Assembly (NCBI GenBank): GCA_009837395.1
Contig: VXTP01000043.1
Coordinates: 186,001 to 250,000, forward strand
Length of the DNA: 64,000 nucleotides
Source: Gemmatimonadota bacterium
Lineage (GTDB): Bacteria > JAAXHH01
Direction: 5' to 3'
The notes beneath the pieces were generated by a model. The model was not told the origin of the DNA, ran no database searches, and was given only the letters and a program-made list of their open reading frames with translations. This document shows, in pieces, positions 3 to 57,524 of the stretch (its first letter is position 1; every line of letters starts with the position of its first letter). The position numbers and the translations under genes were made by a program.

Positions 3-1256
3 GGCCTGGCGCCCGAAGAGGCCCTGCCGCTCTGGCATTACACGCAGTTCGCCTACGGAGAGCCCCTGGAACCGGTCAATTGGCCCACCATCGAGTCCTA
101 CCTGGACCTCTTTCCGGGCCGCTCACCCGCTAACGTGTATCCCCAGGTGCCGCACTGCGCCGTGCGCGTCAAGGCCATGGGCTGGGACCCGGGGGCGCCC
201 ACGCCAGACCAGATGAAGGTCATGGAAGCGGAGACCCGCGCCTGGATGGAAGCCGGCGCCGGCTGCCTCTGCCTGGGACTGGACTACCAGCCCAGCGCCA
301 ACGCGCCTTTCGAGGAACTGGTAGCGCTTTGCAAGGTGGCGCTGGAATACGACGGGATCTACGCCGCCCACCTGAGATACCAGATCCTGGGACGGGACCG
401 GGCCTGGCAGGAACTCATCGACCTGCACCGGGCAAGCGGCATTCCCGTGCACGCATCCCACGAACGAGTCGACGACATGACGGGTCCGTTCCTGGACCAG
501 GCCATGAAAGACGGGGTGGATGTCTCCTTCGAATCCTATCTCTATCCGGCGGGCATGACCCATATCACCATGCAACTGCCCATGTGGGTCCAGACGGGCA
601 GTCCGGAAGAAGTCCTCGAGCGGATGCGCCTGCCGGATACCCGTCGCAAGGCCCTCGAGTATCTGAAGTCGACGAACCTGGCCGACCGCCAGTACATCGG
701 CTATACTCGTTCAGGCAAATTCGCGGGGATGACCCTGGGCGAGGCCGCGCGGAGCGTGAACAAGACGAACGAGGAATTCGCCTACGACCTCGTCCTCGAT
801 GAAGACGGCATCCAGGCCTTCGTCATGTTCTGGCCGGTGCCCGAAGCAGAAGTCGACGCCGTGCTGAACCGGACGGCGCCCCATTCCCTCATGATGGTCG
901 CCAGTGACGGCGTCTATGACTGCACCCATCCCCATCCCCGGGGCATGGGGTGTTTCGCGCAGATGCTCCGGAAGTTCGTTCGGGAGCGCGAGCTGCTGTC
1001 CCTGGAAGAGGCCGTCTACAAGATGAGTGGCTTTCCGGCGGAACGTTACCGGCTGAAAGACCGGGGCGTGCTGCGCGAAGGCGCGCCCGCGGACGTGGTC
1101 GTCTTCGATCCGCGGACCGTGGCCGACCGGGCCACCTTCGAAGCGCCGATCCAGCCTCCCGACGGAATTCCACACGTCTTCGTCAACGGCATTCCGGTCA
1201 TCGAAAACCACGAGCCCACGGCGCACCGCCCGGGCCAGGTCCTGAGCAGAGGATAG
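3..1256 (+). CDS. N-acyl-D-amino-acid deacylase family amidohydrolase, 5'-truncated by window edge
   Basis: The reading frame is open from the first bases of the window, so the N-terminus with the metal-binding HxH motif is missing. The visible part is the C-terminal two thirds of a D-aminoacylase-type amidohydrolase, which removes the acyl group from N-acyl-D-amino acids in the cytoplasm. The best evidence is the C-terminal block: GVLREGAPADVVVFDP, then a TVADRATFEAPIQ stretch, then GIPHVFVNGIPV and a RPGQVL ending, which is diagnostic of the family. The HASHERVDDM segment and ASDGVYDCTHPHPRG fit the metal-site and substrate loops. A GTG at 135 is only an internal codon. The pepF gene follows after 21 bp, suggesting co-transcription and use of peptide-derived substrates. 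Substrate specificity cannot be read from this part. Confidence 0.82.
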   Translation, partial: GLAPEEALPLWHYTQFAYGEPLEPVNWPTIESYLDLFPGRSPANVYPQVPHCAVRVKAMGWDPGAPTPDQMKVMEAETRAWMEAGAGCLCLGLDYQPSANAPFEELVALCKVALEYDGIYAAHLRYQILGRDRAWQELIDLHRASGIPVHASHERVDDMTGPFLDQAMKDGVDVSFESYLYPAGMTHITMQLPMWVQTGSPEEVLERMRLPDTRRKALEYLKSTNLADRQYIGYTRSGKFAGMTLGEAARSVNKTNEEFAYDLVLDEDGIQAFVMFWPVPEAEVDAVLNRTAPHSLMMVASDGVYDCTHPHPRGMGCFAQMLRKFVRERELLSLEEAVYKMSGFPAERYRLKDRGVLREGAPADVVVFDPRTVADRATFEAPIQPPDGIPHVFVNGIPVIENHEPTAHRPGQVLSRG

Positions 1257-1277
1257 GAAGGGACGCGTTGTAGATAC

Positions 1278-3080
1278 ATGGATTGGGATCTGGCTGCTTA
1301 CTTTCCCGCATTCGACGGACCGGAGATGCGCCGTTTCAAGGCCGGCCTCCGGAACGACCTGGACGCTTTGCTGGCCGATGCCTCGGGCACGGCGGATTTG
1401 AACCCCGGCAACATGGAAGTGTGGGAGCGCATCGTCCTGTCCTTCGAAGACGCCGTCACCCGGTTGCGGCACCTGGGCTCCTACGTTTCCTGCATTACCT
1501 CCGCGGACGCGAACAACGAGGAATTCGCCGCAGAGGAAGGCGCGTTGAGTCTGCTGGACGCCCGGATGTCCAAGATACTCGTGGAACTTCAGCGGGGACT
1601 CAAGACCCCTTCGGACGAGGTTTTTGAAGCGTTCACTTCCCGCCCCGCCCTCCGGGACGCACGGTACCGCATTTCCCGAATCAGGGAGCAGTCGCGGCAT
1701 ACCATGTCCACGGTGGAGGAACACCTGGCCTCCGACCTGGGCGTGGACGGGATCGAGGCCTGGGGACGGCTATACGACAGGATCTCGGGCAAGCTGACTT
1801 TCGAGATGGCCTATCCGGACGGCCGGCGGGAGCAGGTGCCCATGTCGCAGCGCCGCGCCCTGATGGAACACCCGGACCGGCGGGTACGTCGCGCCGCCTT
1901 CGAGGGGGGCAACGAGGCCTGGACTTCGATTGAGACGGTGCCGGCCGCCGCGTTGAACGCCATCGGAGGCACGCGGTTGACCCTGTACCGCCATCGCGGC
2001 ATGGACCACTATCTGGATAAGGCCCTGTTCCAGGCGGCGATCTCGCGGGAAACGCTGGACGCCATGTTCGAAGCGGTGTTCGCGGAAATCGATGTAGCCC
2101 GCGGCATCCTGGCGTACAAGGCGCGCCTCATGGGCGGCGATACACTGGGATGGTACGATCTCTCGGCGCCCCTGACCGTGGAGCACCAGGACGAACCCTC
2201 CTGGGATGATGCCAGGGCACTGGTGCATCGAGCCTTCGCGGCCGGATATCCCGCCCTGGCAGACTACACGAACGAGGCCTTCGAGCGCAAGTGGATCGAC
2301 TGGTCGCCCCGGCCAGGCAAGCGTCCCGGCGCCTTCTGCACGGGTTCCCCACTGACGAGAGAGTCCCGTGTATACATGACTTATAACGACAACATGGGTG
2401 ACGTGTTGACCCTGGCCCACGAACTGGGGCACGCCTTTCACGGCCATCTGATGCGGGAGGAACGCACGCTGAACCGCGCCTACCCCATGACCCTGGCCGA
2501 ATCCGCTTCCACCTTCGGCGAGATGCTGCTCATGCGGGGCCTGCTGGAGGAACCGGACGTGAGCGCCGAAACCAGGGCCTTCCTGTTGAACCTGGAGGCC
2601 AGCGACGGCGCCACCTACCTGATGGACATCCCGGTGCGATTCGAATTCGAAAAGGCCTTCCACGAAGAACGGGCGGACGGCGAAGTCGGCGTGAGCAGGC
2701 TGAAGGAGATGATGGTCGAGACCCAGCGCCGCGTGCTCGGCGACGTGCTGGACCCCGAGGGCGGCGATCCCTACTTCTGGGCGTCCAAGCTTCATTTCTA
2801 CATCACAGACACCACGTTCTACAATTTCCCCTATACCTTCGGCTACCTGCTCAGCCGGGGGCTATTCGCCCGGTACGAGAAGGAAGGTCCGGATTTCCTG
2901 CCGAGATACGAGCAGTACCTCAAGCTGACCGGCAGCGATACGGCGGAAAACGTGGTGCGGCAGACCATCGGCCTCGAGCTCACGGAGCCCGAATTCTGGT
3001 CGGAAGCCATACGGGGATTGGATGGAGTGCTGGACCAACTGAAGGCCAGCGTGGACGAAAGCCGTGCCGTGTTGAATTAG
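1278..3080 (+). CDS. pepF: M3 family oligoendopeptidase F
   Basis: A 600-residue cytoplasmic zinc metallopeptidase of family M3B, which cleaves short oligopeptides. The zinc site is HELGHAFHGH with HEXXH at residues 381-385, followed by the third-ligand helix around TLAESASTFGEMLL. The length matches PepF (about 600 aa). The C-terminal YNFPYTFGYLLSRGLFA block is typical of the family. The start is ATG at 1278; a GGAAGGG lies rather far upstream (about 1256-1262). It sits between an N-acyl-D-amino-acid deacylase and a NUDIX gene on the same strand, consistent with a peptide-scavenging neighbourhood. Confidence 0.92.
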   Translation: MDWDLAAYFPAFDGPEMRRFKAGLRNDLDALLADASGTADLNPGNMEVWERIVLSFEDAVTRLRHLGSYVSCITSADANNEEFAAEEGALSLLDARMSKILVELQRGLKTPSDEVFEAFTSRPALRDARYRISRIREQSRHTMSTVEEHLASDLGVDGIEAWGRLYDRISGKLTFEMAYPDGRREQVPMSQRRALMEHPDRRVRRAAFEGGNEAWTSIETVPAAALNAIGGTRLTLYRHRGMDHYLDKALFQAAISRETLDAMFEAVFAEIDVARGILAYKARLMGGDTLGWYDLSAPLTVEHQDEPSWDDARALVHRAFAAGYPALADYTNEAFERKWIDWSPRPGKRPGAFCTGSPLTRESRVYMTYNDNMGDVLTLAHELGHAFHGHLMREERTLNRAYPMTLAESASTFGEMLLMRGLLEEPDVSAETRAFLLNLEASDGATYLMDIPVRFEFEKAFHEERADGEVGVSRLKEMMVETQRRVLGDVLDPEGGDPYFWASKLHFYITDTTFYNFPYTFGYLLSRGLFARYEKEGPDFLPRYEQYLKLTGSDTAENVVRQTIGLELTEPEFWSEAIRGLDGVLDQLKASVDESRAVLN

Positions 3081-3145
3081 CAGGTGTCGAGCGGGTCAGG
3101 CCCGGTCCGCCGGTCCCGCCGGCCAGCCCCGCCAGGGAGAGCCTC

Positions 3146-3895
3146 ATGACCGTCATCGAGGGGGAGCGCAACCGGTTCCACGGCGTGGAAGTCGACTCGG
3201 ACGCCCTGCCGGACAATCCGGATGGATTCAGGGAGCGCCTGGACCTTTCGATCCGGACATGGAAGGCAGAGGACCTCCAGGTCGCCTGGTTCAAAGTCCC
3301 CCTGGACCGCGCTTTTCTCATTCCCGCACTGGTGGATGCGGGAAGCGTGTACCATCACAGCACCACCGATTACCTGATGCTGACGCTCAGGTTGGTGGAG
3401 GACGCCTTCGTGCCGCTGTACGCGACTCATTACATCGGCGCCGGTGGCGTGGTGATCAACGAGAAGGACGAACTGCTCGTGGTGTGCGAACGGTTTCGCG
3501 GTGGACGCGCCCCCTACTACAAGCTTCCCGGCGGCGCACTGCAGCCGGAGGAGCACCTGGCCGAGGGCGTCGTCCGGGAGGTTTTCGAAGAAACGGGCGT
3601 GCCGACCCGCTTCGACGGCCTGGTCTGTTTCCGGCACTGGCACGGATACCGCTACGACAAATCCGATATCTATTTCGTCTGTCGCCTGAGGCCGCTCCAC
3701 CAGATCATCCAGATGCAGACCACGGAGATCGAAGAGTGCTTCTGGATGCCGGTGGCGACTTACATGGGCTCGGAGAACGTCAGCCAGTTCAACAAGCTCA
3801 TCGTCAAGGCCGCCGTGGAGAACCAGGGTCTGAAGGAAACGTGGGTCGACGGTTACGGCGATCCGGAACGGTACGAGTTCTTCATGCCGGAGTAG
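3146..3895 (+). CDS. NUDIX hydrolase with NUDT6-like N-terminal domain
   Basis: A 249-residue protein. The C-terminal half holds a complete Nudix box, GGALQPEEHLAEGVVREVFE followed by ETG (about residues 129-151), with the REVFEE metal ligands. Such enzymes hydrolyse nucleoside-diphosphate-linked compounds. The N-terminal 90 residues (starting FHGVEVDSDALPDNPDGF) resemble the pre-NUDIX domain of eukaryotic NUDT6 and plant NUDX proteins. The start ATG follows a GGGAG ribosome site. Its substrate is unknown; the neighbouring genes give no clear pathway. Confidence 0.85.
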   Translation: MTVIEGERNRFHGVEVDSDALPDNPDGFRERLDLSIRTWKAEDLQVAWFKVPLDRAFLIPALVDAGSVYHHSTTDYLMLTLRLVEDAFVPLYATHYIGAGGVVINEKDELLVVCERFRGGRAPYYKLPGGALQPEEHLAEGVVREVFEETGVPTRFDGLVCFRHWHGYRYDKSDIYFVCRLRPLHQIIQMQTTEIEECFWMPVATYMGSENVSQFNKLIVKAAVENQGLKETWVDGYGDPERYEFFMPE

Positions 3896-3953
3896 GTAGC
3901 GTTATAAATAGTAAAACATCCATAACTTAACACACATCATCGAGGACTGACCC

Positions 3954-5360
3954 ATGGCCAAGACCCGCCGGCGCAGGAAGAAGCATCCCAATATCGTACT
4001 GTTGGGCGTGGATTCCCTTCTGGCCGATCACATGAGCTGTTACGGCTACCACCGACAGACCACGCCCCATATCGACCGATTCGCCGAGGGCGGCGCGTTG
4101 TTCGAGAAGACCTACAGCGCTCATATCCCTACGACCAGCGCCTACGCGTCCATGTTGACCGGCCTGGACGCCTTCGGCACCCAGGTGGTGGCCCTGCGGC
4201 ACAAGGGCGGCCTGCGGGAGGACGTGCAGACGCTGCCCGAGATCCTGCGGGAGCATGGATACGCGACCACCAGCGTGGGCTTTGCCGGGAACCCGTCGTC
4301 CCGCGGTTTCGACAAGTACCTCGAGTATCCGAGCTGGGGAAGCTGGAACGAAGGGCGCAGTCCCAAGGCGCAGAAGCTGAACGACGTAGCCATCCCGGAA
4401 CTGGACCGGCTCGCAAGGCGGCGCGGCCCCTTCTTCCTGTTCCTCCGCCACATGGACCCCCACGCGCCGTACCTGCCGCCGAAGCCCTACGAGCGCATGT
4501 TCTACCATGGCGACGAGTGCGACCCGAAGAACAGGTCCATGGATCCGGTCAAGGCGTTCAAGCCCTTCTGCGATTTCTTCGCCCAGTGGATGCCGCCGGG
4601 CATCACCGACAAGGACTACGTCATCGCCCAGTACGACGGAGCGGTGGCGTACATGGACGCCTGCATCCAGACGATCTTCAACGCCCTCGAGGCCCACGGC
4701 ATCATGGACGAGACGATCGTGATCCTCAACGGCGACCACGGCGAGACGCTCTACGATCACGAATGCTGGTTCGACCACCACGGTCTCTATGACGTGACGC
4801 TCCACGTCCCGCTCATCATCCGGTATCCGGGCAGGATCCCCGCGGGTGGCCGCGTCAGCGGGTACAACCAGCACAAGGACCTCGTGCCCACCATCCTGGA
4901 CCTGGCGGAAATCAACACGGGGATCGACTTCGACGGCGACAGCCTGATGTCCCTGGTAGACGGTACGGTGCCTTCCTTCGACAGCGAGTTCTACATCACC
5001 GAGTGCACCTGGATGCGCAAGCACGGCTGGCGAACGCCCCAGTGGAAACTGATGGTGGCCCTGGAACCGGATTTCCACTTCAAGCCGCCGGTCGAGCTGT
5101 ACAACCTGGTGGAGGATCCGGATGAGAACAATAACCTGGCCGATGAGCTGCCGGACGTGGTAAACCTGCTCAAGCGGCGCATGAGGAACTGGATCAGCAA
5201 ACGGGTGAAGGAGACAGGGAAACGCAATCCCATGCTGACCCAGGGGGACTGGCACGGCCATGAGGGGGTAGGGGCCTTCAAGTCCTCGCAGCAGGCCTAC
5301 GACACGATGCATATCGGCGATCCCAACCAGGCCGCGAGCCTGCAGGCGCGCAGCCGATGA
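3954..5360 (+). CDS. Sulfatase/alkaline-phosphatase-fold hydrolase with noncanonical nucleophile site
   Basis: A 468-residue sulfatase-family protein without a signal peptide; it begins with a very basic stretch (KTRRRRKK). Metal-ligand motifs are present: NIVLLGVDS near the N-terminus and LNGDHGETLYDHE about residues 258-270. The activation motif, however, reads PTTSAYASMLTG. Counting back from the conserved TG, the position of the Cys/Ser converted to formylglycine is Thr60 and the motif Arg is Tyr64. A canonical sulfatase needs C/S-x-P-x-R. The protein may therefore be a phosphodiesterase-like member using Thr, or inactive. It precedes a Gfo/Idh/MocA dehydrogenase, isomerase and galactonate dehydratase, so a sugar-ester substrate is plausible. 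The family call is firm; the activity is open. Confidence 0.8.
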   Translation: MAKTRRRRKKHPNIVLLGVDSLLADHMSCYGYHRQTTPHIDRFAEGGALFEKTYSAHIPTTSAYASMLTGLDAFGTQVVALRHKGGLREDVQTLPEILREHGYATTSVGFAGNPSSRGFDKYLEYPSWGSWNEGRSPKAQKLNDVAIPELDRLARRRGPFFLFLRHMDPHAPYLPPKPYERMFYHGDECDPKNRSMDPVKAFKPFCDFFAQWMPPGITDKDYVIAQYDGAVAYMDACIQTIFNALEAHGIMDETIVILNGDHGETLYDHECWFDHHGLYDVTLHVPLIIRYPGRIPAGGRVSGYNQHKDLVPTILDLAEINTGIDFDGDSLMSLVDGTVPSFDSEFYITECTWMRKHGWRTPQWKLMVALEPDFHFKPPVELYNLVEDPDENNNLADELPDVVNLLKRRMRNWISKRVKETGKRNPMLTQGDWHGHEGVGAFKSSQQAYDTMHIGDPNQAASLQARSR

Positions 5361-5380
5361 CGGGGTCGCCGCGCCGCGTC

Positions 5381-5405
5381 GCGTGGTATCAAAACCGCTT
5401 TTTCT
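5381..5405 (+). terminator. Weak hairpin plus T-run after sulfatase-like gene
   Basis: About 20 bp after the stop codon, GCG-T-GGT and ACCGC can pair around an ATCAAA loop with a two-base bulge, followed directly by five T residues. The stem is short, so this is only a possible intrinsic terminator. It would separate the sulfatase-like gene from the following oxidoreductase. Confidence 0.3.
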
Positions 5406-5505
5406 ACACAGGTATTTAGTGGACCGATCCGCGCAACTTACTGAAATATCGTAGTTTAACACGCGAGAATCGATAGTCTGAGATTTAGCAAAGGAGCGTT
5501 TGAAG

Positions 5506-6501
5506 ATGGGGCTGAATATCGCGGTGGTGGGCATGGGCGGCATCGGAAACAACCATGCACGGAACTACCAGGAACATGAAGCGTGCACGATCGTGGCCGT
5601 TTGCGACGCCATCAAGGACAAGGCCGACGAGGCGGCGCAGACCTACGGCTGCAGGGCATTCAACAGCGTCGGAGACCTGTTGAACAGCGGGTTGAAGGTC
5701 GACGCGGCCAGCGTATGTACGGCCGGCGTGGAGAACGGCGGGGATCATTACGCCCCGACGATGGAATTGCTGGGCGGCGGCATCCCCGTACTGGGCGAGA
5801 AGCCCATATCGAACGAGATCCCGAAGGCCCGGGAGATGGTCGCGCTGGCGCAGGAACGGAGTCTTCGCTACGGGATCAACCTCAACCACCGCTTCACGCC
5901 GGCCGCGCTCCGGGCGAAGGAATGGGTCGAGGCCGGCCGGCTGGGCGAACTGAACATCATCAACATGACGATGTGGATCAACAACCCCAACGAGAGCTCG
6001 CCCCATTTCCACATGCGGGCGCTTCATCCCCACTCCATCGACGTGATGCGGTATTTCTGCGGCGACGTGGAGAAGGTGCAGGCCTTCTTCAAGAAGGGCC
6101 GGGGACGGAAGATCTGGTCCAACGTCCAGGTCAACATGCTGTTCGAGAACGGCGTCGTCGGCCATCTCACCGGGAGCTACGACGCCGGGGGAAGCTATGG
6201 CCTGGAGACCTGCGAGGTCGTGGGCTCGGACGCCCGGTTCGTCATACGCGAAGCCTGCGAGGGACTGGAATTCTATCCCCGGCATTCCAGGGAAGTGGAA
6301 TCCTACCAGTACCTGGGCGGCATGATGGGGTTCTCTGAGACCTTCGGCTCGCGGATCACCCGCTGGATTGAACAGAACCTGGAAGGCGCGGCGCCGGAGG
6401 ACATCGACGCCAAAGCCGAGGATGCCCTGCGCGCCCAGTTGATCATCGAGGCTGCCATCGAATCATGGGACACCGATTCCGTAGTTACGGTACAATATTG
6501 A
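5506..6501 (+). CDS. Gfo/Idh/MocA family NAD(P)-dependent oxidoreductase
   Basis: A 331-residue cytoplasmic dehydrogenase of the glucose-fructose oxidoreductase/inositol dehydrogenase family. The N-terminal Rossmann motif is VVGMGGIGNNHA, and the family EKP motif appears as GEKPISNEIPKA near residue 105. The C-terminal half is the substrate-binding beta-sheet domain. An AAGGAG ribosome site at 5491-5496 is nine bases from ATG 5506 but only three from an in-frame TTG at 5500, so ATG 5506 is preferred. It is followed 40 bp downstream by a sugar-phosphate-isomerase-like gene, a common pairing in polyol, inositol and amino-sugar catabolism. The substrate is unknown. Confidence 0.9.
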   Translation: MGLNIAVVGMGGIGNNHARNYQEHEACTIVAVCDAIKDKADEAAQTYGCRAFNSVGDLLNSGLKVDAASVCTAGVENGGDHYAPTMELLGGGIPVLGEKPISNEIPKAREMVALAQERSLRYGINLNHRFTPAALRAKEWVEAGRLGELNIINMTMWINNPNESSPHFHMRALHPHSIDVMRYFCGDVEKVQAFFKKGRGRKIWSNVQVNMLFENGVVGHLTGSYDAGGSYGLETCEVVGSDARFVIREACEGLEFYPRHSREVESYQYLGGMMGFSETFGSRITRWIEQNLEGAAPEDIDAKAEDALRAQLIIEAAIESWDTDSVVTVQY

Positions 6502-6541
6502 CGGTACAAAACTAACGATACGAGACTGACAAGGAGCAAAC

Positions 6542-7339
6542 ATGAAACTCGGTGCCAACTCGGTACTGTTCGGCGGCTACGACATGGAAACGGCCTTCAA
6601 GTACCTGTCCATGGCCGGGTACGACGGCATGGAAGTGTCGGCTATCGGCGGCATGAGCGAGCATCTCGTCCTGTCGGACTGGCGAGCCATCGCGCCGGAA
6701 ATCCGGCGTCTGTCCGACGAATATGGCCTGGAACTGCTGGCCATGGAGCAGCCGTCCCAGGACGGGGAAGTCATGGAGTCCGCGTTCCAGGCCGCGGTCG
6801 AGACCGGCATCCCGATCATCAACTGCGGACCCGGCGGAACGTCCGGAGACGAGGAGAGCCTCCAGGCGACCATCGATTCGCTGGGCAGGCTGGCGGACCG
6901 GGCGGAGCAGTATGGCGTCACGCTCTGCGTCAAGGCCCACGTGGGCGCAAGTATCTACGACACGCCGACGACGCTGCGCGCCATGGAAGCCATATCGTCT
7001 CCGGCCTTCGGGATCGACATGGATCCTTCCCATATCCACCGCGCCGATGAGAACACAGTGGACGCTATCAAGGCGGTGCTGCCCCGCGTCCGCCACGTGC
7101 ACATCCGCGACTGCAAGGGTCGCCAGGCAGGTCCGGGGGCGCCGGAGGACCAGGCTAACGGCCGCGGCGATATCGACCTGGTCGGGTATATCCGCGCACT
7201 GCACGAGGGCGGTTACGACGGTCCGGTCAACCTCGAGGTCATCGGGGCAAAGGAATATTCACTGGAGCAGTGTTGTGTCATCGCCGCCGAAACGCGGGGT
7301 CACATGCAGGCTTGTCTCCAGGCGTGCGGAGCGCGGTAG
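6542..7339 (+). CDS. Sugar phosphate isomerase/epimerase-like TIM barrel
   Basis: A 265-residue TIM-barrel protein of the xylose isomerase-like/AP endonuclease 2 superfamily. Segments such as CVKAHVGASIYDT, GIDMDPSHIH, HVHIRDCKGR and a closing VNLEVIG carry the expected metal-binding acidic and His residues. Members isomerise or epimerise sugars, or act on inosose-type cyclitols. AAGGAG at 6531-6536 sets the ATG start. It is paired with the upstream Gfo/Idh/MocA oxidoreductase. Its last four codons run into a 23-bp tandem repeat, and its TAG stop lies inside the first repeat copy. Confidence 0.85.
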   Translation: MKLGANSVLFGGYDMETAFKYLSMAGYDGMEVSAIGGMSEHLVLSDWRAIAPEIRRLSDEYGLELLAMEQPSQDGEVMESAFQAAVETGIPIINCGPGGTSGDEESLQATIDSLGRLADRAEQYGVTLCVKAHVGASIYDTPTTLRAMEAISSPAFGIDMDPSHIHRADENTVDAIKAVLPRVRHVHIRDCKGRQAGPGAPEDQANGRGDIDLVGYIRALHEGGYDGPVNLEVIGAKEYSLEQCCVIAAETRGHMQACLQACGAR

Positions 7340-7419
7340 GTTGGTTGGCCGGAGCGCGGTAGGTTGGTTGGCCGGAGCGCGGTTGGGTGGCAGGCCGGAG
7401 CGCGGTTGGGTGGTAAAAC
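7328..7419. repeat. Four tandem copies of a 23-bp unit overlapping a gene end
   Basis: Four head-to-tail copies with period 23 lie at 7328-7350, 7351-7373, 7374-7396 and 7397-7419. The first two are identical (GGAGCGCGGTAGG then TTGGTTGGCC); the third is changed in its second half and the fourth diverges at its end. The first copy contains the stop codon of the upstream isomerase. There are no unique spacers, so this is not a CRISPR array. The remainder lies directly before the ribosome site of the dehydratase gene. Confidence 0.95.
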
Positions 7420-7443
7420 GGCAGATAACCGGAGAGGCACACC

Positions 7444-8547
7444 ATGAAAATCACCAAGCTGGAGACCTTCCTTGTCAAGCCCCGATGGCTCTTTCTCAAG
7501 ATCCATACCGACGAGGGCCTGGTGGGACTGGGCGAACCCATCCTGGAGGGCCGGGCAAAGACCTGCGCCCAGGCCGTGGCGGAGTTGGAGCCGTATCTGA
7601 TCGGCAAGGACCCGACCCGGGTGGTCCACCACTGGCAGGCCATGTACCGCCACGCCTTCTACCGGGGAGGTCCAATCCTGACCAGCGCGCTCAGCGGGGT
7701 GGAACAGGCGCTCTGGGACCTGTCGGGCAAGGCCCTGGGCGTGCCGGTGTACAAGCTGCTGGGCGGCCCCACGCGCGATCGCATACGGTTGTACAAGGGC
7801 GGCGGCGACCCGGACACCATCGGGGACTGGATCGCGAAGGGGTTCACCTGCTTCAAAACCGGACCGTATGCGGAGCGACCATCCCGCATCATCGAGAACA
7901 AGGCCTTCATCGACACGGCCGCCAACCACTTCGCCCGGCTGAGGGAAGTCGCCGGCCCGGAAATCGACCTGGCCATCGACTTCCACGGCGCGATCAGCCC
8001 CCAGACGGCCAAGCTGCTCATCAAGGAACTCGAACCCTACCAGCCCTTTTTCGTGGAAGAGCCCGTTCAGTGCCAGAACGTCGACGTGCTCGCCGAGATC
8101 GCCCGGGGCACCCACCTGCCCATCGCCACGGGAGAGCGCGTCTTCACCAAGTGGGGGTTCCGGGAGATCCTGGAGAAGCAGGCCGCGGCCATCCTGCAGC
8201 CGGACCTGTGCCACGCCGGCGGCATCTTCGAGGTACGGCTCATCGCGGGCATGGCCGAGGCCTACTACGGCGGGATCGCGCCCCACAACCCCCTCGGACC
8301 CATTTCCCTGGCCGCCTGCCTGCAGCTGGACGCCTCGATCCCCAATTTCGTCGCCCAAGAACACACCACGCTGGGCGAGGGATACCTCAAGAAGCCCTTC
8401 GTCTTCAAGGATGGATTCGTAGAATTGCCCACGGGACCGGGTCTGGGTATCGAACTGGACGACGACGCCATGGAGGACAAGATCGACCACGACTGGCGCA
8501 ACGGTGAAAGCTACCTGGCCGACGACGGGTCCGTGGTGGACTGGTAG
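7444..8547 (+). CDS. dgoD: D-galactonate dehydratase-like enolase-superfamily enzyme
   Basis: A 367-residue mandelate racemase/muconate-lactonizing-enzyme family protein that resembles DgoD along its whole length: LKIHTDEGLVGLGEPILEG near the N-terminus, FYRGGPILTSALSGVEQALWD, then the catalytic segment. Visible active-site residues are Asp179 and His181 (DFHG), Glu205 (FVEEPV), Glu231 (TGERVF) and His281 (APHNPLGP). DgoD dehydrates D-galactonate to 2-keto-3-deoxygalactonate. It is slightly shorter than the E. coli enzyme (382 aa). GGAGAGG at 7431-7437 fixes the start. It is the last gene of the leftmost + strand run and converges with the next operon. A related aldonate could be the true substrate. 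Confidence 0.85.
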   Translation: MKITKLETFLVKPRWLFLKIHTDEGLVGLGEPILEGRAKTCAQAVAELEPYLIGKDPTRVVHHWQAMYRHAFYRGGPILTSALSGVEQALWDLSGKALGVPVYKLLGGPTRDRIRLYKGGGDPDTIGDWIAKGFTCFKTGPYAERPSRIIENKAFIDTAANHFARLREVAGPEIDLAIDFHGAISPQTAKLLIKELEPYQPFFVEEPVQCQNVDVLAEIARGTHLPIATGERVFTKWGFREILEKQAAAILQPDLCHAGGIFEVRLIAGMAEAYYGGIAPHNPLGPISLAACLQLDASIPNFVAQEHTTLGEGYLKKPFVFKDGFVELPTGPGLGIELDDDAMEDKIDHDWRNGESYLADDGSVVDW

Positions 8548-56052: not shown

Positions 56053-56400
56053 TTACGATTTACTATCATGGATGATGGAATCGAGTTGATCAATAAGTGG
56101 TGGCAGTTCGTCCTTTATTGTGTCCCACAGCCTTTCAAGACTAATGTCGTCATATCCATGAACCAATCGATTGCGCATTCCAACAATCTGAGGCCAGGGA
56201 ATGGCGGATTGATGTCGCTACGTTTCCTCGGAAACACGGGTGGCCGCTTCGCCTACAATCTCCACCAGCTTCCGCAACGCGAGTTCCATGACCCTGTCTT
56301 CTGCAAGGTCATCCAAACTGGCCTCACCGAGCAAATTAACCGCTTCCTCCGCGTAGTTTCGCATATCTGTTAGCGCTACTTGATCATTACGTCTGCTCAT
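56053..56400 (-). pseudogene. hepT: HepT (DUF86) toxin interrupted by an in-frame TAG
   Basis: The frame from ATG 56400 gives a HepT N-terminus (MSRRNDQVALTDMRNYAEEA, then LALRKLVEIVGEAATRVSEET) and hits TAG at 56220-56218, codon 61. The same frame then continues with the rest of the protein: IPWPQIVGMRNRLVHGYDDI, and ends at TAA 56053, giving about 115 codons, the normal HepT length. The HEPN catalytic motif RNRLVH (R-x4-H) and the adenylylation-target Tyr lie after the TAG, so the product should be inactive. Start overlaps the antitoxin gene by 14 bp. Confidence 0.85.
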
Positions 56401-56701
56401 AAACTGTCTCTGCCGTACCAAGTATCTCCTTCTGGAGCAACCCGTTTCGGCTTCTTTCAACTCCCTCAAGGGTGTGCAGATCGACATTCCTGCCAAGCAT
56501 ATCAATCAACTCAATTTCCAATCCTGCCAGTCCAATATAACCAATAAGTGTATCCGGCTCGAAATCCACCAGTATGTCCACATCGCTTTCAGGCGTGAAA
56601 TCGTCGCGCAGAACAGACCCGAACAGGGCAAGGCGCTTGATATGGTGCCGCTGGCAGAATTCAGCGATCTTATTGTTGGGTATGTTAATACGTACGTTCA
56701 T
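56387..56701 (-). CDS. mntA: MntA-type nucleotidyltransferase antitoxin
   Basis: A 104-residue minimal nucleotidyltransferase. The active-site motif GSVLRDDFTPESDVDILVDF (GSx10DxD) is complete. MntA antitoxins AMPylate the HepT toxin. The partner toxin here carries a stop codon, leaving an apparently intact antitoxin without a functional target. Confidence 0.9.
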   Translation of the reverse strand: MNVRINIPNNKIAEFCQRHHIKRLALFGSVLRDDFTPESDVDILVDFEPDTLIGYIGLAGLEIELIDMLGRNVDLHTLEGVERSRNGLLQKEILGTAETVYEQT

Positions 56702-56903: not shown

Positions 56904-56984
56904 GTTTAACGGGGATCGTTCCCGTAACCGGTTCAGGATCGTTTCGCGAGGGAGGAACAGGGGTTTCGGAAAGGCGTGCAAGGC

Positions 56985-57524
56985 ATGGTAAGCGAACATG
57001 TCCTCGTTCTGAACCAGAACTACGAGCCTTTGAGTGTTTGTACGGCAAGACGGGCGGTCATTCTCGTTTTTCTGCGCAAGGCGGAGATCATTGACAATTA
57101 TGCGGACCCGGTGCGGGGCGTTTACACGCTGTTCGACCGGCCCAGTATCGTCCGGCTCGTGAACTTCGTCCGCATACCCCGCAAGGGTATCATGCTGTCC
57201 CGCAAGAACATTCTCAAGCGCGACGGGCACCAGTGCCAGTACTGCAGTACGACGAGAGGCCCCCTGACCGTGGATCACGTCCTGCCCAGGTACCTTGGCG
57301 GTAGGGACAGCTGGGAGAACATGGTCTGCGCCTGCCAGCGGTGCAACAACAAGAAGGGGGACCGGCTGCCGGAAGAGGTGAACATGGCGCTGCGGCGCAA
57401 GCCCAAGGCGCCCACCAGGATACACTTTATTCGAGACTTCATTGGCATCCACCATCATTCCTGGCGGCCCTACCTGTTTCTGAAGAACGAACAACCGGAA
57501 GAATTGCTATGGCCTACCAGGTAA
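56985..57524 (+). CDS. HNH endonuclease family protein
   Basis: A 179-residue protein. The N-terminus VLVLNQNYEPLSVCTARRAV is typical of housekeeping HNH proteins; the nuclease core has CQYCSTTRGPLTVDHVLPRY, then CACQRCNNKKGDR, giving CxxC pairs for zinc and the D-H catalytic pair. GGAAAGG ten bases upstream favours ATG 56985 over a GTG at 56976. It overlaps scpA by 16 bp. Its cellular task is unknown. Confidence 0.9.
   Translation: MVSEHVLVLNQNYEPLSVCTARRAVILVFLRKAEIIDNYADPVRGVYTLFDRPSIVRLVNFVRIPRKGIMLSRKNILKRDGHQCQYCSTTRGPLTVDHVLPRYLGGRDSWENMVCACQRCNNKKGDRLPEEVNMALRRKPKAPTRIHFIRDFIGIHHHSWRPYLFLKNEQPEELLWPTR

What the first reader, a model, noticed from the sequence alone, without database searches (positions are those of the whole stretch)
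56053..56701. HepT toxin inactivated by an in-frame amber codon beside an intact MntA antitoxin
The toxin frame stops at TAG (56220-56218) but the same frame then encodes the rest of HepT, including the RNRLVH HEPN catalytic motif. One base change (for example CAG to TAG) explains it. This is a snapshot of toxin loss with the antitoxin retained, or stop-codon readthrough could silence the toxin conditionally.
Basis: seen in the sequence. Interest (0 to 1): 0.6.

Follow-up and report, generated by a model that had tools for sequence, protein, structure and literature searches.

The report
Broken HepT toxin beside intact MntA
A bacterial toxin gene (hepT) has been cut in half by a stop codon while its antitoxin gene (mntA) stays open; the same break occurs in a second species, and the pair is the leftover of a larger anti-phage restriction system, so this is real but fairly ordinary decay of a defence gene.

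Summary
The hepT frame at 56400-56053 (-) has an in-frame TAG at 56220-56218 (codon 61), followed by 54 sense codons encoding the rest of HepT, including the catalytic RX4HXY motif. MntA (56701-56387) is open with its GSX10DXD motif.

It is not an assembly slip: a second species of the genus (G001) has the same TAG at the same codon in DNA that differs by 10 bases across the module. Readthrough is not supported: the 44 tRNAs found include no amber suppressor, there is no pyrrolysine system, RF1 is present, and TAG ends 10 of 44 large ORFs in the window.

The module is a remnant of a type III restriction-modification operon that survives at this same site in another species; the first and last codons of res are still visible after hepT. 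mntA is mosaic. The amber module is shared with G001 although one flank is closer to G002, which carries a different, intact module, so the broken allele seems to have moved between species. In G001 another hepT is also stopped, at the catalytic arginine, with mntA open.

Best reading: toxin-first decay of a type VII toxin-antitoxin module. Selection for the leftover antitoxin is possible but not shown.

The parts
56387..56701 (-). mntA, 104 aa minimal nucleotidyltransferase antitoxin, open; mosaic gene
   Evidence: ORF; PF01909 54.5 bits; 5' part 98-100% to G009, 3' part resembles RM-embedded alleles
56576..56620 (-). GSX10DXD catalytic motif of MntA (codons 28-42), intact
   Evidence: read from the translation; motif definition from PMC7641770
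56560..56580 (-). approximate mosaic breakpoint in mntA
   Evidence: identity to G009 falls from 100% (56625-56576) to 56% (56575-56526) while identity to L004/L005 stays 76-84%
56218..56400 (-). hepT 5' part: 60 codons plus the TAG; predicted product lacks the catalytic motif
56218..56220 (-). in-frame amber codon, hepT codon 61
   Evidence: same codon in G001; relatives have sense codons, mostly Gln/Lys/Arg
56053..56217 (-). hepT 3' part, 54 sense codons plus TAA, predicted untranslated
   Evidence: no start codon with a convincing ribosome site upstream of the motif
56152..56175 (-). RX4HXY (RNRLVHGY) HEPN RNase motif and its AMP-acceptor Tyr, downstream of the stop
   Evidence: motif from PMC7641770
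55961..56053 (-). remnant of a type III res gene: original start (ATGCCTTCC) fused by internal deletion to the last codons (NDYLNHLFKAQLTT, TGA)
   Evidence: alignment to the end of G008 res, 0 of 2000 shuffles as good; res start follows the hepT stop in the same way in G008 and L004
55158..55949 (-). mazG, conserved left flank of the site
   Evidence: PF03819 146 bits; conserved across the genus
56976..57524 (+). HNH endonuclease-family gene, conserved right flank of the site
   Evidence: PF14279/PF01844; found in all 14 genomes of the family

Best explanation
This is a decaying type VII (HEPN/MNT) toxin-antitoxin module. Its toxin has been switched off by a nonsense mutation upstream of the RNase active site, while the adenylyltransferase antitoxin frame remains open. 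The module is what is left of a type III restriction-modification operon (mod, a class II MNT/HEPN pair, mntA-hepT, res) at the mazG/HNH site: mod, the MNT/HEPN pair and nearly all of res are gone, and the 5' half of mntA comes from a resident solitary-module allele. Translation should give a 60-residue HepT fragment with no catalytic motif, hence no RNase and no need for antitoxin. The broken module has since been exchanged between at least two species. Shown: the stop, its sharing, the mosaic, the res remnant, the lack of a suppressor. Inferred: loss of toxicity, the order of events, lateral exchange rather than old polymorphism.
For: Stop and continuing frame. Same TAG in G001. No suppressor tRNA among 44, no Pyl system, RF1 present, TAG a normal terminator. 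The model places codon 61 in a short helix before the active-site loop; the motif (76-83) and the final helix 88-114 would be lost. The best 19 PDB fold matches are HEPN/HepT toxins (E-values 0.009-0.5, probability 0.98-1.00). Intact mod-MNT-HEPN-mntA-hepT-res operon at this site in G008 and a similar one in L006; res remnant after the window's hepT. Mosaic mntA. Left flank closer to G002 (96.5% over uxuB-mazG) than to G001 (93.7%), yet module 98.2-99.2% identical to G001 and about 69% (hepT side) to G002; silent divergence 4/145 sites in the module against 30/184 in mazG, p 4e-5. Parallel case in G001: the second hepT is stopped at the catalytic Arg, mntA open.
Against: Apart from the TAG the frame is uncorrupted, with 2 silent and 0 amino-acid-changing differences after the stop between G000 and G001; this fits recent inactivation but would also fit a frame still read (too few changes to decide). 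Amino-acid changes in the module are not significantly in excess (p 0.056 against mazG, 0.30 against an intact module), so relaxed selection is not proven. Reads, expression and toxicity were not available.
Confidence: 0.82

Rival explanations
1. Selected anti-addiction allele: the dead-toxin module with a live MntA is kept and spreads because MntA can neutralise HepT toxins of incoming or resident modules at this hotspot.
For: Module shared across species against left-flank relatedness; MntA open with GSX10DXD; the GSX10DXD half of MntA is the resident type; other species carry intact homologous toxins at the site; in G001 a second mntA beside a broken hepT is also open, and omega over that pair is 0.16. 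Anti-addiction by orphan antitoxins is a described idea (PMC7354431; PMC7192599).
Against: MntA differs between G000 and G001 by 3 amino-acid-changing and 1 silent change, so no constraint is visible; the 0.16 for the second mntA mostly reflects time before the recent stop; the second half of MntA matches the dead toxin's lineage, not the resident toxins; cross-neutralisation is untested.
Confidence: 0.1
2. Conditional stop-codon readthrough: UAG is occasionally read, giving a little full-length HepT under some condition.
For: The 3' frame is intact and shows no amino-acid-changing differences in 54 codons between two species.
Against: No CTA-anticodon tRNA among 44, no PylS or MttB, RF1 present, TAG ends 10 of 44 large ORFs in the window. 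None of the other homologues examined has a stop at this codon; they use sense codons.
Confidence: 0.05
3. Split toxin: translation restarts after the TAG and the two fragments reassemble into an active HEPN.
For: An in-frame ATG (codon 75, 56178) lies just before the RX4HXY motif.
Against: No convincing ribosome-binding site upstream of that ATG and it lies 14 codons past the stop; the fragment would have 41 residues; no relative is split there.
Confidence: 0.02
4. Sequencing or assembly error at 56218-56220.
For: The window is from a draft assembly in 47 contigs and reads were not seen.
Against: The same TAG at the same codon in G001, whose module DNA differs at 10 other positions and whose left flank differs by about 6%.
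Confidence: 0.01

Closest known systems
MntA-HepT (SO_3165/SO_3166) of Shewanella oneidensis, type VII toxin-antitoxin, PMC7641770
   Same: Antitoxin-first gene pair, PF01909 plus PF01934, GSX10DXD in MntA, RX4HXY encoded in hepT; fold matches to the solved structures
   Different: Here hepT is stopped before RX4HXY, so the predicted product has neither the RNase motif nor the AMP-acceptor tyrosine
Solitary intact mntA-hepT modules of the same genus at the same mazG/HNH site (G002, G004, G007, G009)
   Same: Same site, orientation and overlap; 5' mntA nearly identical to G009
   Different: HepT only 59-62% identical, no stop, both genes under purifying selection (omega 0.12-0.21)
Type III restriction-modification operons with embedded MNT/HEPN genes (G008 at this site; L006 in a Latescibacterota genome)
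   Same: mntA-hepT of the same lineage lies directly before res; the window keeps the res start and end
   Different: The window lacks mod, the class II MNT/HEPN pair and nearly all of res
Orphan or degraded toxin-antitoxin loci, e.g. orphan antitoxins in Klebsiella, PMC7192599
   Same: Antitoxin frame kept, toxin lost or degraded
   Different: Here a mosaic type VII module, with the broken allele shared between species against left-flank similarity

Membership tests
Type VII MntA-HepT toxin-antitoxin | HEPN toxin of PF01934 beside an MNT of PF01909 | tested here: met
   80.7 bits (read through) and 54.5 bits, both over the cutoff
Type VII MntA-HepT toxin-antitoxin | MntA GSX10DXD motif | tested here: met
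   G28 S29 ... D40 x D42 in the translation
Type VII MntA-HepT toxin-antitoxin | RX4HXY motif present in the translated toxin | tested here: not met
   Motif lies after the TAG; the predicted product ends at residue 60
Type VII MntA-HepT toxin-antitoxin | Antitoxin gene first, overlapping the toxin gene | tested here: met
   14-nt overlap 56387-56400, as in L004
Type VII MntA-HepT toxin-antitoxin | Toxicity neutralised by polyadenylylation | not testable with these tools
   Needs expression and biochemistry
Type III restriction-modification system | mod and res genes | tested here: not met
   Only a 31-codon res remnant in the window; no Res match at E <= 1e-60 in the own genome; mod absent from the site
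UAG recoding (pyrrolysine or amber suppression) | Suppressor tRNA, or PylS/MttB | tested here: not met
   44 tRNAs, none with CTA; PylS below cutoff (a HisRS); no MttB; the genome is 95.6% complete
Anti-addiction antitoxin | Antitoxin neutralises toxins other than its own | not testable with these tools
   Needs a neutralisation assay

The most novel reading that the evidence does not exclude
A mosaic, toxin-dead but antitoxin-live HEPN/MNT allele is spreading between species by recombination at a defence hotspot because it lets cells replace or ignore addictive MntA-HepT modules.
Probability: 0.1. Interest if true: 0.55.

Novelty: new member of a known kind. Interest (0 to 1): 0.33.

Why it matters
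Toxin-antitoxin decay is well known, but the order of events is rarely caught. Here one site in one genus shows an intact host operon, intact solitary modules, a toxin-dead module shared by two species, partial deletions and empty sites. That makes it a small natural series for asking whether toxins die before antitoxins, and whether antitoxins left behind are useful or just waiting to decay.

Tried and rejected
Amber suppression and pyrrolysine: rejected. Assembly error: rejected by G001. In-frame TAG between window ORFs 135-1256 and 1278-3080 as a second recoding case: rejected, two unrelated genes (amidohydrolase, M3 peptidase). The first codon comparison of G000 and G001 was off by one base and was redone. 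A phylum-wide search gave no more amber copies, but only 16 genomes are held. The single-sequence PDB search found nothing; the profile and the fold search did. Plasmid Res relatives inspected have mod directly followed by res, without MNT/HEPN genes. A general claim that HepT is repeatedly dead when linked to type III res was considered; of four loci with a full res, two are motif-dead (G008, L009) and two intact (L004, L006), too few to claim.

Full report
Observation. On the minus strand the hepT frame begins at ATG 56400, stops at TAG 56220-56218 after 60 codons, and continues in the same frame for 54 sense codons to TAA 56055-56053. Read through, it matches Pfam HepT-like (PF01934) with 80.7 bits across both halves. 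mntA (56701-56387) is open, matches PF01909, and keeps GSX10DXD. The published hallmarks of this toxin-antitoxin type are RX4HXY in HepT and GSX10DXD in MntA (PMC7641770). RX4HXY lies after the stop. A model of the read-through protein (mean pLDDT 91) puts codon 61 in a short helix ahead of the active-site loop; truncation removes the motif and the final 27-residue helix. The best 19 fold matches in the PDB are HEPN/HepT toxins, with weak E-values (0.009 to 0.5) but probability 0.98-1.00.

Is the stop real? The same TAG at the same codon occurs in a second species of the genus, G001, in DNA that differs from the window at 6 of 348 hepT positions and 4 of 300 mntA positions. The same error in two assemblies of different species is very unlikely. 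Reads were not available.

Is the stop read? The 44 tRNA genes found include none with a CTA anticodon (the genome is about 96% complete). There is no MttB, and the only PylS-like hit is far below cutoff and is a histidyl-tRNA synthetase. RF1 is present. TAG ends 10 of the 44 large non-overlapping ORFs in the window. No other homologue examined has a stop at this codon; they have sense codons, mostly Gln, Lys or Arg. Readthrough at more than background level is therefore unlikely.

Surroundings. The module sits between mazG and an HNH gene. Across the genus this site is a turnover point. G002, G004, G007 and G009 have solitary mntA-hepT pairs with HepT 59-62% identical to the window's, open, with both genes under purifying selection (omega 0.12-0.21). 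G006 has a different MNT/HEPN pair plus a hepT scrap and a res tail. G005 keeps only a tail resembling a hepT end; G003 and G011 have no module. G008 has a complete operon: type III methyltransferase (PADLOC 799.8 bits), MNT, HEPN (PF05168), MNT, HepT, and type III res (PADLOC 459 bits). In G008 the MntA and HepT motifs are both degenerate.

Origin of the window module. Among the closest relatives of the window's HepT outside the genus, L004 (78%) and L006 (66%) lie directly in front of a res gene; L006 has the whole mod-MNT-HEPN-mntA-hepT-res order. L005 (76%) has MNT/HEPN and mntA hits split between frames and no res within the DNA held. In the window, the 31 codons after hepT begin with the res start and end with the res C-terminus; the match to the end of G008 res is not reached in 2000 shuffles. 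So the window once carried, or received by recombination, a res gene that has been internally deleted. In mntA, the stretch 56725-56576 is 98-100% identical to the solitary module of G009, while from about 56570 onward identity to G009 falls to about 55% and the sequence resembles the operon-type alleles. The antitoxin is thus mosaic, with the break just after its catalytic motif.

Movement of the broken allele. Over uxuB-mazG the window is closer to G002 (96.5%) than to G001 (93.7%), and over HNH-scpA they are equal (96.2%). Yet the module is 98.2-99.2% identical to G001 and about 69% (hepT side) to G002. Silent differences in the module are 4 of 145 sites against 30 of 184 in mazG (p 4e-5). 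The simplest reading is that the amber module was exchanged between the two lineages after they parted. No formal recombination test was run.

Selection after the stop. The window-G001 comparison has only 10 changes in the module (4 silent, 6 replacing). That ratio is not significantly different from mazG (p 0.056) or from an intact module pair (p 0.30). After the TAG there are 2 silent and no replacing changes. These counts cannot tell neutral decay from retention. The claim that MntA is kept by selection is neither supported nor excluded.

A second case. G001 carries the orthologue of another G000 mntA-hepT pair (G000:C16, intact). In G001 that hepT has TGA at the codon of the catalytic Arg and a later TAG, while its mntA is open. 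So two independent toxin-first inactivations are present in this genus, one of them shared by two species.

Mechanism. Shown: nonsense truncation before the RNase motif, an open antitoxin with catalytic motif, remnant and mosaic structure, no suppressor found. Inferred: a 60-residue fragment without RNase activity; antitoxin dispensable for its own toxin; any continuing role (anti-addiction) speculative.

Literature. HEPN families are known to cluster with R-M operons, and the RX4-6H motif is conserved in about 83% of the PF01934-type group, so dead members are expected (PMC3710099). Orphan and degraded antitoxin loci are common, and anti-addiction has been proposed for them (PMC7192599; PMC7354431). 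The finding is therefore a new example of a known kind, with an unusually clear local history.

Noticed in passing
L069 (G001:C78:17240-17554) versus L068 (G000:C16): A second hepT in the sister species is stopped by TGA exactly at the catalytic arginine codon and by a later TAG, while its mntA is open; the G000 orthologue is intact.
   Followed up: yes
L139 (G008:C21) 631-8526: Complete type III R-M operon with two embedded MNT/HEPN pairs at the mazG/HNH site; in it the second MntA has lost the G of GSX10DXD and HepT has lost both R and H of RX4H.
   Followed up: partly
L161 (G021:C3) 810-4620: In a Gemmatimonadota type III operon no mntA or HEPN2 match is found and two Fic-family genes (462 and 309 aa) lie between the MNT gene and a HepT whose catalytic His is Gln. 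Fic proteins are often AMPylators, as MntA is; whether they replace it is unknown.
   Followed up: no
L112/L140 (G006:C9): At the same site an MNT/HEPN pair related to the PF05168-type pair of G008 is followed by a scrap of hepT and the tail of res.
   Followed up: partly
L138 and L142 (G001 contigs C113 and C109): The G001 assembly breaks at the start of mntA; the contig ends appear to overlap by about 22 bases with one mismatch, suggesting strain variation at the module.
   Followed up: partly
L155, L156, L157, L158 (plasmids of haloarchaea and Athalassotoga): Relatives of the res gene lie directly after mod with no MNT/HEPN genes between, so those genes appear to be an insertion into the mod-res pair in the bacterial lineage seen here.
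   Followed up: partly
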